A stretch of 64,000 nt of DNA from Holophagae bacterium (GTDB taxonomy: Bacteria > Acidobacteriota > Holophagae > Acanthopleuribacterales > Acanthopleuribacteraceae), in assembly GCA_029263455.1 (NCBI GenBank), contig JAJCXM010000022.1:1-64000 (forward strand), given 5' to 3'. The stretch's first letter is position 1. Each line of letters starts with the position of its first letter. The notes beneath the pieces are model-generated. The model saw only the letters and a list, made by a program, of their open reading frames with translations. It was not told where the DNA came from and ran no database searches. Positions 23,946 through 31,120 of this stretch are shown here, one piece after another. The position numbers were made by a program, and so were the translations under genes.

Positions 23946-24776
23946 TTATCGGAATTTCCCTGACAACCGCTTGAGAATTTTGCGGGCGATGACTTGGGCG
24001 CGGATGCTGAGTTTGTTTAGGCAGCGGCATTGACCACGCCAGTGCCCGCAGGGCAACATGATTTGTTTGGATTGTGCCCCGACCGTTTTCTCGATGACAT
24101 CCCAGTATTTAAGTTTGTCGGTGCCAAAGGTGATGCTTATCAATACCCTTAACTCTTGTGTGGTTGCATAAGGGGCCGTTGAGTGGGTGAAGCCTTCGCC
24201 AAAAATAATAGCTTCGCCTAACTCATAACGATAGGTTTGCGTTCCGTCCAAGCTCTGATAACGAAGATAACGATGCGATTCTTGTAGTTCGAATAACGGC
24301 GTCATCAGCGTAAAGGCTGGCGCGCCGGCATAATAATCAACGTGCCAATTCTCGCCGGGTGCCTGATTACCCACCACCATGAAGCCGCAGTACATGACCA
24401 AACGTTTATCATGATCAATCAACTTCCTGATGTGGTCCTCAATGGCCAATGTGTCGAGGAACTGGCGGTAAAGCGCATAACAGGTGGGCGTATTGGTGGA
24501 GAGCCACAACAAAGGGTAACGACCATAAGTGGTCAGATAGTAATCATCATTGCCGTCCATCTTCTGGCTGAAATGCTCACCACCGACTAAGAACTTTTGG
24601 TGATCTTCTAACTCTAGAAAAGGCTTAATTTGATCTAGGTAAGATTGGCGCAACTCGTCGAGTAGCTCTGGCTCAAAACGAACCACATAGGCATTATGCG
24701 CGCCAAGTTGTTCGATTTTCATATCTGTACCATCATGGTTGCCACTGTAGCACTGAAGCTTAGCTAAGAACGACAT
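23946..24776 (-). CDS. 2-oxoglutarate/Fe(II)-dependent oxygenase-like protein
   Basis: A protein of 276 residues with a plausible double-stranded beta-helix iron site: His145 and Asp147 in WHVDYYAG, His198 in GFTHSTAP, and an arginine shortly after in LRVLIS that could bind 2-oxoglutarate. The C-terminus has a short cysteine pair (GQCRC) and a basic tail. I choose the ATG at 24774-24776 because GGAG lies six bases before it; the frame is open a little further. It diverges from the lasso-type operon with 177 bases between starts. Iron/2OG enzymes tailor some lasso peptides (canucin A is hydroxylated on Asp), so a link is reasonable but is inference. Confidence 0.55.
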   Translation of the reverse strand: MSFLAKLQCYSGNHDGTDMKIEQLGAHNAYVVRFEPELLDELRQSYLDQIKPFLELEDHQKFLVGGEHFSQKMDGNDDYYLTTYGRYPLLWLSTNTPTCYALYRQFLDTLAIEDHIRKLIDHDKRLVMYCGFMVVGNQAPGENWHVDYYAGAPAFTLMTPLFELQESHRYLRYQSLDGTQTYRYELGEAIIFGEGFTHSTAPYATTQELRVLISITFGTDKLKYWDVIEKTVGAQSKQIMLPCGHWRGQCRCLNKLSIRAQVIARKILKRLSGKFR

Positions 24777-24849
24777 CTGAAACTCCAAAGCCCATATCAA
24801 TAATGCTCTCTTAAATATGAAGTACCTTTTGACTTAAACGACTTGATTG

Positions 24850-24953: not shown

Positions 24954-25091
24954 ATGAAAAGAATCAAATCGGTCTATAACAAACCCGTTCTGAAATGTTA
25001 CGGGTGTATCGGTGTTATGACCCAAGGTAACTCCAGCGTTATGAACCAGCCAGGTGGGAAAAAGCAAGCGGCGGAAAATCCAAATAAGTAA
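24954..25091 (+). CDS. Lasso-type precursor peptide A1, lacking a ring acceptor
   Basis: A 45-residue peptide with a clear RBS (AGGAG at 24941-24945, eight bases before the ATG). The leader contains YNKPVLKCYG and ends VMTQ. This fits the lasso leader pattern Y-x2-P-x-L-x3-G and the conserved Thr at position -2. Cleavage after Gln24 would give a core starting GNSSVMNQP. Known lasso peptides close a ring from residue 1 to Asp or Glu at position 7, 8 or 9, and here those positions are Asn, Gln and Pro. Aligned with A2, one residue is missing exactly where A2 has its acceptor Asp. The leader has two cysteines absent from A2. It may be a decayed copy or make a non-lasso product. Confidence 0.75.
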   Translation: MKRIKSVYNKPVLKCYGCIGVMTQGNSSVMNQPGGKKQAAENPNK

Positions 25092-25189
25092 GCGACCCCT
25101 CTAAAAAAATCAAAGTTTACGAAAGCGACCTGAATCTTGATACTCAAGCTGTGCTATCTTTTGCCCGAAAACAGTCTAGAGGTAACAGT

Positions 25190-25489
25190 TTGTCATACTC
25201 GCTTGATGGTTATGTGGTTCCGCCTGATGATTATGTTTCTAAAACATTCGATCAGGAAACGGTGATTGTTGACTTGGAGGGCGGAGAATATTTCGGGCTC
25301 GAAAAGGTTGGTGCCCGTTTTTGGGCTTTGGTTGAATTGGGTTCCGGGTTGCGTCCCGCTTTTCGGACATTACTTGATGAGTTTGACGTCGATGAAAAGA
25401 CGCTGGAAAGCGATCTTCTTGAGCTAGTCGGCGAATTGGTTGACCATGGTCTCCTAAAGTATAGCGATCATCACCCAGATGCGGTTTGA
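25190..25489 (+). CDS. Lasso B1 protein: PqqD-like RiPP recognition element
   Basis: A 99-residue PqqD-family protein. B1 proteins bind the leader of the precursor and hand it to the processing enzymes. The PqqD pattern is visible: VIVDLEGGEYFGLEKVGARFWALVE, then a helix with TLLDEFDVDEKTLESDLLELV and a final DHGLL. The frame is open from a GTG at 25151, but that start has no RBS. The TTG at 25190 has AGAGGT six bases before it, so I use it. The gene lies between A1 and the lactam synthetase, the expected place for B1. The B2 protease domain that sometimes follows or fuses with B1 is absent. Confidence 0.88.
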   Translation: MSYSLDGYVVPPDDYVSKTFDQETVIVDLEGGEYFGLEKVGARFWALVELGSGLRPAFRTLLDEFDVDEKTLESDLLELVGELVDHGLLKYSDHHPDAV

Positions 25490-25505: not shown

Positions 25506-27371
25506 TTGGGCGGCATAGCCGGTATTTTTCATCGACGTGACCAGGTGGCCAAGCGCCGAGACGTGGACACAATGTTAAAACCCAGTGCCGTACGTGGCCC
25601 ACACGGGTCTCAAATATGGCTAGATGGTCCCGTTGGTTTGGGTCATTTGGCATTGCATATTTCCGCTAACCAGAGGCTCGACCCCCAACCTGTCTCGATA
25701 GGCCAACAAACCATTTGTTTGCATGGCCGCTTGGACAACCGAGCCGAAATAGCGAAAGCCCTGACTAAAGATGAACCGACAAACCATGTATGTGATGCGC
25801 GTTTGGCATTGATGGCCTACCAAGCATGGGGACTAGAAGCCTGGCCAAAGTTTGCCGGTGATTTTGTCTTTGTTATTTGGGACGCTGAAACAGAATCCTT
25901 GATCTGCGTTCGCGATCGCATGGGTCTCAAGCCTTTTCACTATATGGTTCACGAACGTGTTTTCGCATTTGGTAGTGACGTCCGCCAAGTCCTGGCTGTG
26001 TACGATCGCCCACTTATGCCCAACAAGGGGATGATTGCCGAATATTTGGCTAGCCATATCACGTCAAACACCGAGACGCTTTATGAAGGCATCATGCGGC
26101 TTGAACCAGCCCATATGATGACGGTTACGAAGTCGGAAGTTAGGATACAAAGGTACTGGGATCCCAACGCGACCAATGTCAGTTACTCGTTGACAGATGC
26201 CGAGCGCGAAGCCAATTACGCGCACGCTTTTTCGCAAGCGGTTAAGCAGCAATCCGATGTTGAAGCACGCATGGGCGTTTCTTTAAGTGGTGGCATTGAC
26301 TCATCCACCGTCATGGCAGCTTTGGTCCAACACCGGGACAAGGCCCGAATCTCTGCCTATTCATTATGCTTTGAGGGGCTAGAGTGTGATGAAAGCGAGT
26401 CTATGAGGGAGATTGCTTCTACCTGGGGCGTGTCGCATCAACCCTTTTCGTTTGATCCACCGTCTTATGAAGTGATCGCGCAGTGGGTTCGTCGCTGGCG
26501 CGACTTTCCTGATTACCCCAATTTGATGGCCTATAAGCCGCTTAAACAGCAATCTGTCATCGATGGCTCGCGTATTATGTTTTCAGGACTTGGGGCCGAT
26601 GATTGGACCGATTTGCGCTGCTCGCCCTTGCCGGATATGATTGCTCGCTTTCGTTGGCTAAAAGCCGCAAAGGAAATGAAAAGAAGATCAGCCTGGTACG
26701 GTTGGAGACGAATGCCAGGTGTACTGGCTCGCCAAGGCGTCTGGCCACTGTTGCCTGTTAGTTGGAGGCGTAAGCGTTTCACATCATTTGATTTAGGTCG
26801 TAACTATGCGCCATGGCTAAACACCGAATTCTTGTCGAACACACACTTGTCCGAACGTATTTGGGAAGAACGTCAAGGCCGTTTCCCTTCTTATGATCGC
26901 CGTGCTTGGATCCAATGGCTAGAAAAAGGCTATTGTGTGCAGTTCGGTGAAGCACAAGAACGTGTGGCTGCAGAAGCGGGCGTGGAGATGCGCTTCCCTT
27001 TCAGCCATAAAGATGTCGTGGAAATAGGACTAGGCATCCCACCTGAATATAAGTGGCTACGACCTGCCAACAAATGGATTGTCCGGCGTTGTTTTGAGTT
27101 ATTAAAACCACCTGCGGCTAACTTCAATTTCACATCGGCGGAAGGGTCCCCCATCTACATGGGATTCCTTAAGTCACTGGGCGCAAACGAATTCTTCCAG
27201 AGAAACTTAGCGGTTTATGAAAACGGTTGGATTGATGCAGAAAAAATGCGTGCTATTGCTAATGAAAGCTTTCAAATGTACGATAAGGGTAATAGTGTGT
27301 ACGCCTTCAAAGCGCGACCGCTTTGGATGGTGGCCGGCATTGAGCTTTGGCTAGAGAATGCATTTGGATAA
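25506..27371 (+). CDS. Lasso macrolactam synthetase C (asparagine synthase-like)
   Basis: The enzyme activates the side-chain carboxylate of the core's acceptor Asp/Glu with ATP and joins it to the N-terminal amine. The 621-residue protein has the asparagine synthase layout, with the ATP PP-loop VSLSGGIDSSTV near residue 260. The N-terminus reads MGGIAGIF, where true amidotransferases have MCGI. The glutaminase cysteine is therefore replaced by glycine, as expected when no ammonia is needed. It starts with TTG at 25506, 16 bases after the B1 stop. Contrast the AsnB at 17137, which keeps the cysteine. Confidence 0.9.
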   Translation: MGGIAGIFHRRDQVAKRRDVDTMLKPSAVRGPHGSQIWLDGPVGLGHLALHISANQRLDPQPVSIGQQTICLHGRLDNRAEIAKALTKDEPTNHVCDARLALMAYQAWGLEAWPKFAGDFVFVIWDAETESLICVRDRMGLKPFHYMVHERVFAFGSDVRQVLAVYDRPLMPNKGMIAEYLASHITSNTETLYEGIMRLEPAHMMTVTKSEVRIQRYWDPNATNVSYSLTDAEREANYAHAFSQAVKQQSDVEARMGVSLSGGIDSSTVMAALVQHRDKARISAYSLCFEGLECDESESMREIASTWGVSHQPFSFDPPSYEVIAQWVRRWRDFPDYPNLMAYKPLKQQSVIDGSRIMFSGLGADDWTDLRCSPLPDMIARFRWLKAAKEMKRRSAWYGWRRMPGVLARQGVWPLLPVSWRRKRFTSFDLGRNYAPWLNTEFLSNTHLSERIWEERQGRFPSYDRRAWIQWLEKGYCVQFGEAQERVAAEAGVEMRFPFSHKDVVEIGLGIPPEYKWLRPANKWIVRRCFELLKPPAANFNFTSAEGSPIYMGFLKSLGANEFFQRNLAVYENGWIDAEKMRAIANESFQMYDKGNSVYAFKARPLWMVAGIELWLENAFG

Positions 27372-27393: not shown

Positions 27394-27534
27394 ATGAATC
27401 AGAGAAAAACAACTTATTCAAAGCCGCGATTGCGGCAATATGGTAGCGTAAGCGTGTTGACCCGTGGAGCGGATATATCCACGCAGAATGATCCCAACGG
27501 TAAGACCACAACCGGCGGAAAATCAATGCTGTAA
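27394..27534 (+). CDS. Lasso peptide precursor A2
   Basis: A 46-residue precursor between the synthetase and kinase genes, with AGGAG at 27381-27385 eight bases before the ATG. The leader has YSKPRLRQYG and ends VLTR, matching the lasso recognition motif and Thr at -2. Cleavage after Arg24 gives a 22-residue core starting GADISTQND, so Gly1 and Asp9 would form a nine-residue ring. The tail starts PNGK, is rich in Thr and Gly, and ends KSML. Ser20 and several Thr are possible targets of the kinase encoded next. All of this follows the known lasso precursor rules; the actual product has not been seen. Confidence 0.88.
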   Translation: MNQRKTTYSKPRLRQYGSVSVLTRGADISTQNDPNGKTTTGGKSML

Positions 27535-27552: not shown

Positions 27553-28500
27553 TTGGCATATCATTACTCGGCATACGGTCTCAACATCACATCAGAAAGT
27601 CAAATCGCTGGTCTTAGTCAACGGCCAAATGGCGACGTTGATGTGCGGGTAAATCTCGACACGCAATTACATGTTCGGTGGGACGAACCTAGCGACCCGG
27701 TAGACTTCTATCGAAGTCCATATTGCGATGACCATGGTCGTCCTTTGCTCGTTGTAGATAAGTTAAACCCTTTCTTCAGGCTAACCTTCTCTGACCAGGT
27801 TCAATTCATCGTGGCTGAGGATGGTTCACATGTGTGGGGTACATGGCCAGCTACGAGTTCGCGTCGAGACACAGAAATATATCTGACTGGTTCCGTGCTG
27901 GGATTTGTGCTTCGGCTAAAGGGTAAAGTTACTGTGCACGCAAGTTCGGTTCTGTACCAAGGTCAGGCGATTCTCTTAGTCGGCGATTCAGGGTTTGGAA
28001 AATCAACGACTGCCGCTGCTTTTGTGGCCGAAAATGGCCAGCCTTTGGCTGACGATGTGGTCGTCATCGAGACTGATAAGCATGGAGGGTATACGCGCAT
28101 GGGCGCTAATCAGATTCGGCTGTGGCCTGACTCGGTTAGCGGTTTGTATGGTGATGAAGACGCCCTGCCGAAGTTGACCCATGACTGGCCCAAACGGTTC
28201 CAGCAAATCGATGCTGACCCTCAGGCTTCCTACCCCATCGCGGCGGTATTTGTTTTGCAATCGCGATCGGCTCAAGGTCCGACGATTGCCCCAATGACGT
28301 CGGCTGAGATGTGTGGTCATTTACTCTCGAACTCCCATGCTGACGGATTGCAGACGAAAGCAAGCAGGGCGCGAAGTTTTGAGGTGCTATCACAACTCGC
28401 AGAACGGGTGCCAGGTTATTGGCTAACCAATCACACTTCTTTCGAACGACTTAAGGACACCTGTAAGATGTGCTTAGAAACCATTCAAGAGGGACCATGA
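27553..28500 (+). CDS. HprK-like kinase, probable lasso peptide tailoring enzyme
   Basis: A 315-residue protein with the C-terminal kinase fold of HPr kinase. Walker A is VGDSGFGKST at residues 142-151, preceded by VHASSVLY, and LADDVVVIE follows as in HPrK. Homologues in lasso clusters (the paeninodin kinase) phosphorylate a Ser at the end of the precursor. The N-terminus YHYSAYGLNITSE is typical of these RiPP-linked kinases and supports the TTG start at 27553, despite a weak RBS. No phosphocarrier HPr gene is nearby. It overlaps the methyltransferase gene by four bases. The A2 core has Ser5 and Ser20 plus four Thr, but its last residue is Leu, not Ser. Confidence 0.82.
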   Translation: MAYHYSAYGLNITSESQIAGLSQRPNGDVDVRVNLDTQLHVRWDEPSDPVDFYRSPYCDDHGRPLLVVDKLNPFFRLTFSDQVQFIVAEDGSHVWGTWPATSSRRDTEIYLTGSVLGFVLRLKGKVTVHASSVLYQGQAILLVGDSGFGKSTTAAAFVAENGQPLADDVVVIETDKHGGYTRMGANQIRLWPDSVSGLYGDEDALPKLTHDWPKRFQQIDADPQASYPIAAVFVLQSRSAQGPTIAPMTSAEMCGHLLSNSHADGLQTKASRARSFEVLSQLAERVPGYWLTNHTSFERLKDTCKMCLETIQEGP

Positions 28501-29639
28501 CCTATTCCATCTTCGCATTTGGGCGCATGATTGATGATCGAGAACGCACGGAATCCTACGTCAAGGCCCTCCAGGCCAGTGTTCGCCCCGGTTCGGTGGT
28601 GGTTGACATAGGCGCCGGAACCGGGGTTTTTTCGTTGGTGGCTTGTCAGCTCGGAGCCCGAAAGGTGGTTGTCATTGAACCCAATGAGGCCATACAAGTT
28701 GCGCGTGAATCAGTTAATGCCAATGGTTTTTCGGATCAGGTGGAATTCGTTCAAGATCTGTCGACTGTTTACGCAAGTGTTGAGAAGGCGGACGTAGTGG
28801 TAGCCGACATTCGCGGTGTCTTGCCTATGCACCAAACCTCCATAAATTCGATGATCGATGCCCGCGAACGATTGTTAAAGCCAAAGGGAACGCTTATTCC
28901 GGGCCATGACTCACTTTGGGCCACCCTTGTTCAGCATGAATCTATTCACAAACAACATATTAGCCCGTGGCACTGGGAACCGTTAGGACTCAACCTTAAA
29001 GCTGGTAGGCCCTACGCCTGCAATCACATGCGCAAAGAACAATTCCAGCCCAAACAGTTGGTCGTCGAGGCTCAATGCTGGGCCGAACTTGACTACCGCA
29101 CGATCGTGGAAGCCAACATCAAAGGCTCAATCTCGTGGACACTTTCTGAAAATATTCAAACCCATGGCATTGCTGCCTGGTTTGATACCGAGTTGCTGCC
29201 AGGAATCGGATATTCCAATGCGCCCCAGACGGGTCGTGAATTGTACGGCACCATGTATTTTCCGTTTGATGAGGTGATCAACGCACAAAAGGGACAACGC
29301 ATCCAAGTGTCCATCCAAGCGAAGCCCGTTAACCACGATTACGTTTGGATATGGGAGGCAGCCGTTTTTTCAGAGGATGGCACACGGATCCAGCGCGTCA
29401 AACAAAGCTCTCTTTTCAGTTCATCCATCCACGCGCAACGGATTCAGAAGGTCCAGGACCAGCAGGTAACGGCACTTAGCCCGGAGGGCTTGCTTGCGCT
29501 AGATATTCTTGAGCAAATGCGATCGGGTCTTACGATTCTTAATATAGGGCGTGCGGTTTATAAGGCGTATCCCGACCGCTTTAATGATGAAGAAGACGCG
29601 GTCCATTTTGTGGCCGGGTACGCACTCAAGTACACATGA
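28497..29639 (+). CDS. PRMT-like methyltransferase with C-terminal PqqD-like domain
   Basis: A 380-residue class I methyltransferase. The SAM motif VVDIGAGTGVF is at residues 34-44, then VVVIEPNE and VVVADIRGVLP. The beta-barrel half resembles protein arginine methyltransferases, but the catalytic double-glutamate loop is not present (DIRG in place of SEWMG). The last 55 or so residues (from about 327, LSPEGLLALDILEQMRSG) look like a small PqqD/winged-helix domain that could bind a leader peptide. The ATG at 28497 overlaps the kinase stop (ATGA), so the two are made together. It is probably a tailoring enzyme for the lasso-type product; the methylated residue is unknown. Confidence 0.72.
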   Translation: MTYSIFAFGRMIDDRERTESYVKALQASVRPGSVVVDIGAGTGVFSLVACQLGARKVVVIEPNEAIQVARESVNANGFSDQVEFVQDLSTVYASVEKADVVVADIRGVLPMHQTSINSMIDARERLLKPKGTLIPGHDSLWATLVQHESIHKQHISPWHWEPLGLNLKAGRPYACNHMRKEQFQPKQLVVEAQCWAELDYRTIVEANIKGSISWTLSENIQTHGIAAWFDTELLPGIGYSNAPQTGRELYGTMYFPFDEVINAQKGQRIQVSIQAKPVNHDYVWIWEAAVFSEDGTRIQRVKQSSLFSSSIHAQRIQKVQDQQVTALSPEGLLALDILEQMRSGLTILNIGRAVYKAYPDRFNDEEDAVHFVAGYALKYT

Positions 29640-29643
29640 GAGT

Positions 29644-29832
29644 AAGCAGCAAGCGGCAAGCAGCAAGCGGCAAGCTACAAGCAGCAAGCAGCAAGCAGCA
29701 AGCGGCAAGCTACAAGCAGCAAGCAGCAAGCGGCAAGCAACAAGCAACAAGCTACAAGCAACAAGCTACAAGCAACAAGCTACAAGCAGCAAGCAACAAG
29801 CAGCAAGCAGGAAGCAGGAAGCAGCAAGCTAC
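29644..29832. repeat. Heptanucleotide array, 27 perfect-length AAGCNNC units
   Basis: Starting five bases after the methyltransferase stop codon there are 27 uninterrupted 7-base units. All begin AAGC; the next three bases are mostly AGC, GGC, TAC or AAC, with two AGG. The tract is 189 bases. Any reading frame across it gives Lys/Gln/Ala/Ser or Cys/Leu-rich artefacts, so the open frames seen here on both strands are not genes. Similar short tandem heptamers are known from cyanobacteria. Short pieces of the same heptamer recur at 33724-33750, 43776-43800 and 44424-44456. Confidence 0.95.
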
Positions 29833-30440: not shown

Positions 30441-30662
30441 ATGTCCGATCAGAAGAACGTCAAACCACCCATTCGCACGTTTGCTTCGTTTGAGGAAGAA
30501 AATCGCGCCGAATCTTTGCGACGTTCAAAGCAAACATCCACTGAGCGCTGGGTCGAATTTAACCTATTACAAGATCGTCTTTTGGGTGAGGGTTGGCGCG
30601 AGAGACCTATCGTCAAAGTGGCTAGCTGGGAAATCGTAGCTTGGTTTAATGGACCGGAATGA
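30441..30662 (+). CDS. Small protein paired with a nucleotidyltransferase
   Basis: A 73-residue acidic/basic mixed protein (starts MSDQKNVKPPIRTF, ends WFNGPE). I do not recognise the family. I prefer the ATG at 30441 over an upstream ATG at 30417, because the latter lies inside a repeated sequence. The stop overlaps the next gene's start by four bases, so the two are coupled. Small proteins of this type upstream of MNT-like nucleotidyltransferases are often the partner in toxin-antitoxin-like pairs, but no such function is shown here. Confidence 0.6.
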   Translation: MSDQKNVKPPIRTFASFEEENRAESLRRSKQTSTERWVEFNLLQDRLLGEGWRERPIVKVASWEIVAWFNGPE

Positions 30663-31120
30663 TTTTTTCGCAAGACGTCAAAGACCTGTTGCGCTTATTT
30701 CAAAAACACGATGTGGCTTATATGCTGGTTGGAGGCCACGCGGTCGTTCATTATGGTTACATTCGGTCTACACAGGATGTGGACTTTCTAGTGATGCCGT
30801 CTAAGGTCAATGCACTACGAGTCTCATCGGCGCTGTTCGAGTTCGGTTTTGGAGACGCAGGTATCGCTCAATCCCTTTTTGAAAAGGAGGGTACGGCTGT
30901 TCATTTGGGCGTTGAGCCCAATCGAATCGATCTGTTAACCCACCTAAAAGGAATTCCAAACGAACGACTGTTCCACAATCGACAAAAGATTGAAGTGGAT
31001 GGACAATCTATCTACATTATTTCGGCATCGGACCTGATCGCCGTCAAAAAAGCATCACAGCGGCTGCGTGATCAGGGTGACGCGGAAGAGCTTGAACGTA
31101 TTTTTCAATCTAATGATTGA
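30659..31120 (+). CDS. MNT/DUF6036-like nucleotidyltransferase
   Basis: A 153-residue protein with the polymerase-beta-like nucleotidyltransferase core: GGHAVVHYGYIRSTQDVDFLV supplies the glycine pair and DxD metal site (Asp-Val-Asp). A second acidic position appears in RIDLL. Such proteins act in toxin-antitoxin pairs or transfer nucleotides to proteins or antibiotics. It is coupled to the small gene before it. The pair stands alone between repeat regions, as accessory modules often do. Toxin or antitoxin roles are not assigned. Confidence 0.75.
   Translation: MIFSQDVKDLLRLFQKHDVAYMLVGGHAVVHYGYIRSTQDVDFLVMPSKVNALRVSSALFEFGFGDAGIAQSLFEKEGTAVHLGVEPNRIDLLTHLKGIPNERLFHNRQKIEVDGQSIYIISASDLIAVKKASQRLRDQGDAEELERIFQSND

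What the first reader, a model, noticed from the sequence alone, without database searches (positions are those of the whole stretch)
27394..27534. A2: small precursor gene with a predicted 9-residue Gly1-Asp9 ring
The 46-codon gene has a strong RBS and sits in the operon between the synthetase and kinase. Its leader matches the B1-recognised lasso pattern (Y-x2-P, L, G and Thr at -2), and the core GADISTQND places Asp at position 9. The tail is Thr/Gly-rich and unusually polar, with few bulky residues to lock a threaded ring, so threading may be held by other means such as a phosphate.
Basis: partly seen in the sequence, partly recalled or inferred. Interest (0 to 1): 0.72.

Follow-up and report, generated by a model that had tools for sequence, protein, structure and literature searches.

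The report
Lasso peptide precursor, phospho-methyl subfamily
This small gene very probably encodes the precursor of a knot-shaped (lasso) bacterial peptide with a nine-residue ring, from a recurring but apparently undescribed subfamily whose gene clusters also carry a peptide kinase and an arginine-methyltransferase-like enzyme.

Summary
27394-27534 is a 46-codon gene with AGGAG 8 nt before its ATG, between a lasso-type cyclase (25506-27371) and an HPr-kinase-like gene (27553-28500). Its leader has Y8-x2-P11-x-L13, G17 and Thr(-2). The core is GADISTQNDPNGKTTTGGKSML, with Asp at 9.

I collected 26 precursors from loci carrying a related PRMT-fold methyltransferase (nearly all with the kinase too; Acidobacteria, Cyanobacteria, Chloroflexaceae, a gammaproteobacterium). 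Asp/Glu falls at core position 9 in 11 and at 8-10 in 23. No within-core shuffle of 20,000 reached 11 in one column. Kinase clusters without the methyltransferase favour position 8. The Gly1-Asp9 ring is therefore well supported.

Three things temper it. The operon's second precursor, A1 (24954-25091), keeps the leader but has Gln where A2 has Asp. The operon lacks the B2 leader peptidase; the only B2-like gene found in the genome is elsewhere, in a radical-SAM cluster, so processing in trans must be assumed. The idea that a phosphate holds the thread has no support.

The new element is a kinase plus PRMT-fold methyltransferase lasso subfamily. The methyltransferase lacks the Arg-binding residues of true PRMTs; its precursors are enriched in Lys/Arg-Thr/Ser near the C-terminus.

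The parts
27394..27465 (+). A2 leader peptide, 24 aa: MNQRKTTYSKPRLRQYGSVSVLTR
   Evidence: NCBIfam lasso_leader_L3 21.3 bits, cut-off 19
27466..27531 (+). A2 core, 22 aa: GADISTQND-PNGKTTTGGKSML; predicted ring Gly1-Asp9; candidate phosphosite Ser20 (Lys19-Ser20)
   Evidence: sequence; homologue comparison
27490..27492 (+). GAT codon of Asp9, predicted isopeptide acceptor
   Evidence: sequence; acid at position 9 in 11/26 precursors of the methyltransferase-bearing loci
24954..25091 (+). A1, paralogous precursor MKRIKSVYNKPVLKCYGCIGVMTQ|GNSSVMNQPGGKKQAAENPNK; Gln8 stands where A2 has Asp9; no acidic residue at 7-10
   Evidence: 43% over 37 aa, E 9e-10; AGGAG 8 nt before the ATG
25151..25489 (+). 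B1: PqqD-like leader-binding protein (RRE)
   Evidence: Pfam PqqD E 5e-13; best NCBIfam match lasso_PqqD_Bac, below cut-off
25506..27371 (+). C: asparagine-synthetase-like lasso cyclase (TTG start, no Cys2, SGGIDS kept)
   Evidence: Asn_synthase E 6e-30; best NCBIfam match lass_lactam_cya E 2e-85, below cut-off; alignment
27553..28500 (+). K: HPr-kinase-like peptide kinase; H129, K150, S151, D167, D168 present
   Evidence: the same residues with the same spacing are named as catalytic in BsfK (PMC10368454)
28497..29639 (+). PRMT-fold methyltransferase with a C-terminal helical extension of about 65 aa; overlaps K by 4 nt

Best explanation
A2 is the precursor of a class II-type (no cysteine) lasso peptide. 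B1 binds the YxxPxL leader; the kinase phosphorylates a hydroxyl near the C-terminus, most likely Ser20 of the Lys-Ser pair; the PRMT-fold enzyme methylates the peptide, perhaps at the neighbouring Lys. A B2-type protease acting in trans cuts after Thr-Arg, and C joins the Gly1 amine to the Asp9 side chain, giving a nine-residue ring with a 13-residue tail. Shown here: gene order, leader motif, Asp9 and its positional conservation in homologues, intact kinase and cyclase motifs, and the PRMT fold. Inferred: threading, order of steps, phosphosite, methylation site, protease in trans.
For: Gene order A1-B1-C-A2-K-MT. Related operons with A, B1, usually B2, C, K and MT in Acidobacteria, Cyanobacteria, Chloroflexaceae and a gammaproteobacterium. 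Acid counts at core positions 8/9/10 are 7/11/5 of 26, with 0/20,000 shuffles reaching 11 in one column; position 9 is 11/26 with the methyltransferase against 1/16 without (p 0.015), which favour position 8 (10/16). C carries SGGIDS. K has all residues named as important in BsfK. Trans-acting B2 is plausible: five other methyltransferase-bearing loci also lack a local B2 while their genomes hold one elsewhere (L084, L086, L087, L092, L127).
Against: No B2 in the operon; the genome's single Transglut_core3 match is a partial one (37.9 bits) in a radical-SAM cluster. A1 lacks the acceptor acid. In L086, L087, L088, L121 and L269 the Asp is at 10 when counted from the same Thr; a ten-residue ring would be outside the 7-9 range I know for lasso peptides. 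Precursors are phylogenetically related, so p-values are optimistic. No product has been observed.
Confidence: 0.68

Rival explanations
1. A linear, phosphorylated RiPP: the B1, kinase and methyltransferase decorate a linear peptide and C is idle, lost in function, or does other chemistry. This resembles the linear polyphosphorylated peptides (LPP) of Bacillota.
For: No B2; A1 has no acceptor acid; LPPs share the YxxP leader, RRE, HprK-like kinase and capsule-locus setting (PMC13381572), and this operon lies beside a polysaccharide locus.
Against: A cyclase with intact synthetase motifs sits in the operon, whereas LPP clusters lack one; Asp position is sharply conserved in homologues; no SpI-type peptidase gene was seen nearby.
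Confidence: 0.17
2. A degenerate lasso cluster: B2 has been lost, A1 is already a dead precursor, and A2 no longer gives a mature product.
For: B2 missing exactly where many homologues carry it, between B1 and C (17 nt gap here); A1 with Gln in place of Asp.
Against: All remaining genes are open, tightly spaced and motif-complete; both precursors keep AGGAG sites; loci without local B2 recur in the family.
Confidence: 0.13
3. One reading: a lasso whose thread is held by a phosphate rather than by bulky residues.
For: Tail without aromatics; kinase in the operon.
Against: Known lasso kinases act on the linear precursor (PMC9266682, PMC10368454); no characterised phosphate plug found in the papers read; aromatic-poor tails do not differ significantly between methyltransferase-bearing and other kinase clusters.
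Confidence: 0.05

Closest known systems
Paeninodin / pseudomycoidin (phosphorylated lasso peptides; PadeK, PsmK, PsmN)
   Same: Split B1, Asn-synthetase-like C, HprK-like kinase with the His-Lys-Asp-Asp residues, nucleotidyltransferase-like genes near many of the clusters
   Different: Those end in the Ser that is phosphorylated; here the candidate is Lys-Ser two residues before the end, with Lys/Arg-Thr in relatives. A PRMT-fold methyltransferase is added; B2 is not in this operon. Paeninodin leaders favour WxxP, here YxxP (PMC13381572)
Bsf lasso peptide of Bradymonas sediminis (BsfK phosphorylates core Ser3)
   Same: YxxPxL leader, discrete B1, kinase with the same catalytic residues and spacing
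   Different: Bsf has Ile at -2 and phosphorylates Ser3; A2 has Thr at -2 and Asp at core position 3
Linear polyphosphorylated peptides (LPP)
   Same: YxxP leader, RRE, HprK-like kinase, setting beside polysaccharide genes
   Different: LPP has an SpI peptidase and no cyclase; here a cyclase and no SpI
StspM / LasF and PIMT-type lasso methyltransferases
   Same: SAM-dependent methyltransferase in a lasso cluster
   Different: The methyltransferase here is PRMT-fold, judged by sequence and predicted structure

Membership tests
Lasso peptide (class II type) | Leader with YxxPxL and Thr at -2 | tested here: met
   sequence; NCBIfam lasso_leader_L3 above cut-off for A2
Lasso peptide (class II type) | Asp/Glu at core position 7-9 | tested here: met
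   A2 Asp9, conserved in position among homologues; A1 does not meet it
Lasso peptide (class II type) | Asn-synthetase-like macrolactam cyclase | tested here: met
   best NCBIfam match is lass_lactam_cya, though below its cut-off
Lasso peptide (class II type) | Discrete RRE (B1) | tested here: met
   PqqD, 49.5 bits, cut-off 23.4
Lasso peptide (class II type) | B2 leader peptidase | tested here: inconclusive
   absent from the operon; one partial match elsewhere in a 95% complete genome
Lasso peptide (class II type) | Threaded isopeptide ring | not testable with these tools
   needs mass spectrometry or NMR of the product
Paeninodin-type phosphorylated lasso peptide | Kinase with the His-Lys-Asp-Asp residues | tested here: met
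   H129, K150, D167, D168
Paeninodin-type phosphorylated lasso peptide | Ser as the last residue of the precursor | tested here: not met
   A2 ends ...GKSML, A1 ends ...NPNK
LPP | No cyclase, SpI-type peptidase | tested here: not met
   cyclase present; no SpI-like peptidase gene recognised among the operon's ORFs
Protein arginine methyltransferase | PRMT fold with SAM-binding and PRMT_C parts | tested here: met
   PRMT_C E 8e-10; PRMT1/8 E about 1e-23; predicted model matches PRMTs
Protein arginine methyltransferase | Double-Glu loop and THW loop that hold the guanidinium group | tested here: not met
   SEWMGYCLFYES aligned to ADIRGVLPMHQT, so both Glu are replaced; THW not conserved; first position Asp in all 15 relatives, second mostly Gln or Gly, Glu in three

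The most novel reading that the evidence does not exclude
A widespread lasso subfamily in which a PRMT-fold enzyme, having lost the arginine pocket, installs an undescribed methyl mark beside the phosphorylated Ser/Thr at the peptide's C-terminus, with processing by a protease encoded elsewhere in the genome and shared between clusters.
Probability: 0.25. Interest if true: 0.6.

Novelty: new variant of a known kind. Interest (0 to 1): 0.42.

Why it matters
If right, it adds a tailoring enzyme class (PRMT fold) to lasso peptides, offers precursor sequences from several phyla for testing the modification, and shows a lasso operon that must rely on a leader peptidase encoded elsewhere. It also extends the recurrent link between phosphorylated RiPPs and polysaccharide loci to Acidobacteriota.

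Tried and rejected
The first scan of genome contigs with the methyltransferase alone found no relatives, and an 8-row alignment was too diverse; a 3-row alignment worked. The idea that the C-terminal 65 residues of the methyltransferase are a second RRE was tested by profile comparison with B1: 30% probability over 31 columns, so not shown. A promoter and terminator scan found fewer sites than shuffles, so it is uninformative. Literature searches for a PRMT in lasso clusters found none among the open-access papers held. The divergent gene at 23946-24800 has no Pfam match and no homologue in the related loci, so I left it out of the operon.

Full report
Check of the observation. The gene at 27394-27534 exists as described. 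The cyclase gene ends 23 nt before it and the kinase ORF starts 18 nt after it; the kinase and the methyltransferase overlap by 4 nt. The site AGGAG lies 8 nt before the ATG of both A2 and A1. The leader is MNQRKTTYSKPRLRQYGSVSVLTR and the core GADISTQNDPNGKTTTGGKSML. NCBIfam's lasso leader model passes its cut-off for A2; A1 matches only lasso_cyano, below its cut-off.

The surroundings. The operon reads A1 (24954-25091), B1 (25151-25489), C (25506-27371), A2, K (27553-28500), methyltransferase (28497-29639). B1 is a PqqD-like RRE, C an asparagine-synthetase homologue whose best NCBIfam match is the lasso cyclase, K an HPr-kinase-like protein, and the methyltransferase a PRMT-fold protein. 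Upstream lies a polysaccharide locus with glycosyltransferases, an O-antigen ligase-like protein, an ABC transporter, and NeuB-, epimerase- and cytidylyltransferase-like genes. Paeninodin and LPP clusters of Bacilli are also often found in such loci (PMC13381572).

The missing protease. In many relatives B2 lies next to B1 and C, commonly between them. Here B1 and C are 17 nt apart with no remnant. A search of the whole genome (95% complete, 40 contigs) with Transglut_core3 finds one match, on contig C1, inside a cluster of a radical-SAM protein, an HprK-like protein and a nucleotidyltransferase-like protein. The second lasso-like operon of the same genome (L022) also lacks B2. L084, L086, L087, L092 and L127 lack a local B2 while their genomes hold one elsewhere. 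A shared protease acting in trans is the simplest reading; it is inferred. A published lasso peptide, pseudomycoidin, was reported to be made without leader and leader peptidase (Zyubko et al. 2019, seen here only as a title in a reference list), so B2-independence is a second option.

The methyltransferase was used to collect related loci from Acidobacteriota, GTDB contigs and the phylum of L122's genome. The kinase was used to collect loci with a kinase but without the methyltransferase. Precursors were read by leader motif. Counted from the leader's conserved Thr, the 26 precursors of methyltransferase-bearing loci have Asp/Glu at positions 8, 9 and 10 in 7, 11 and 5 cases; the expectation per column is 1.7, and none of 20,000 within-core shuffles reaches 11. 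The 16 kinase-only precursors peak at 8 (10 of 16) and have one at 9. Examples with Asp9: AVDMNGMADGGGGGMNKT, GTPAGANKDGGMMPNNKTD, NANRNATRDGGANNLRT, GTTGNSGNDNPKFGLSKTQ, SITGTVNSDGGPVIGMMKTG. Asp9 of A2 thus fits the subfamily rule, and Gly1 is not required (8 of 26 have Gly). Five loci (L086, L087, L088, L121, L269) have Asp10 in this register; either cleavage is shifted by one residue or the ring differs, which I cannot resolve.

The paralogue A1. A1 and A2 align over 37 residues at 43% (E 9e-10). In the alignment A2's N-D-P faces A1's N-Q-P. A1 therefore keeps leader and Gly1 but has an amide where the acceptor acid is needed, so by known chemistry it should not cyclise.

The tailoring enzymes. 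The kinase has H129, G144, G147, G149, K150, S151, D167 and D168, with the spacing of the residues listed for BsfK (PMC10368454). Paeninodin kinases act on the precursor's C-terminal Ser (PMC9266682) and BsfK on core Ser3. A2 has Asp at core position 3 and ends GKSML, so Ser20 is my best guess. The methyltransferase aligns with PRMT1/8, but both glutamates of the double-E loop are replaced and the THW motif is lost; the first position is Asp in all 15 relatives, the second is variable. AlphaFold2 gives a PRMT-like model (pLDDT 81, pTM 0.71). Arginine is thus an unlikely substrate. Precursors of methyltransferase-bearing loci have Lys/Arg in the last five residues in 20 of 26 against 5 of 16 without it (p 0.008), and Lys/Arg followed by Thr/Ser in the last eight in 13 of 26 against 1 of 16 (p 0.006). 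I noticed this pattern on part of the same data. Of three precursors found afterwards (L269, L270, L272), one has the NKT motif, one has Lys and Arg without it, one has neither. The precursors are related by descent, so these p-values overstate the case. A Lys beside the phosphosite as methylation target is a hypothesis.

The phosphate-lock idea. A2's tail lacks aromatics, as do most tails of the subfamily (19 of 26 have no F, W, Y or H after position 10), but this does not differ significantly from kinase-only clusters (9 of 16). There is no evidence that the phosphate plugs the ring.

Verdict. A2 is a lasso precursor with a well supported Gly1-Asp9 ring, in a subfamily that combines kinase and PRMT-fold methyltransferase. 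I found no description of that combination in the open literature searched, which does not cover most subscription papers.

Noticed in passing
29644-29829: Tandem array of a 7-bp unit (AAGCAGC, 26.6 copies) starting just after the methyltransferase stop codon.
   Followed up: no
L022 10940-13908 (own genome, contig C8): Second lasso-like operon in the same genome (precursor core GGDVGQGDSGNFNTAFPS, C, B1, kinase), also without B2 and with Asp at 8 and a terminal Ser.
   Followed up: partly
L020 7163-10551, minus strand (own genome, contig C1): Cluster of B2-like protease, radical SAM protein, HprK-like protein and nucleotidyltransferase-like protein without recognisable precursor; B2, nucleotidyltransferase and the neighbouring tRNA-synthetase gene are in the same order in a congeneric genome (L079).
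   Followed up: partly
L086 6959-8941: Precursor (core AGGMTSRNSDGGHSSQNKTG) read in frame with the C-terminus of the cyclase: a fusion or a sequencing error.
   Followed up: no
L089, L090, L092: Subgroup of methyltransferase-bearing loci whose precursors end in a Cys-Leu pair (LRVCL, RRPCL, TGMCL).
   Followed up: no
23946-24800, minus strand: Divergent gene next to A1 with an HxD...H pattern like 2OG-Fe(II) oxygenases but no Pfam match.
   Followed up: partly
30659-31120: DUF6036/nucleotidyltransferase-like gene about 1 kb after the methyltransferase; nucleotidyltransferase-like genes are also close to many related operons.
   Followed up: partly
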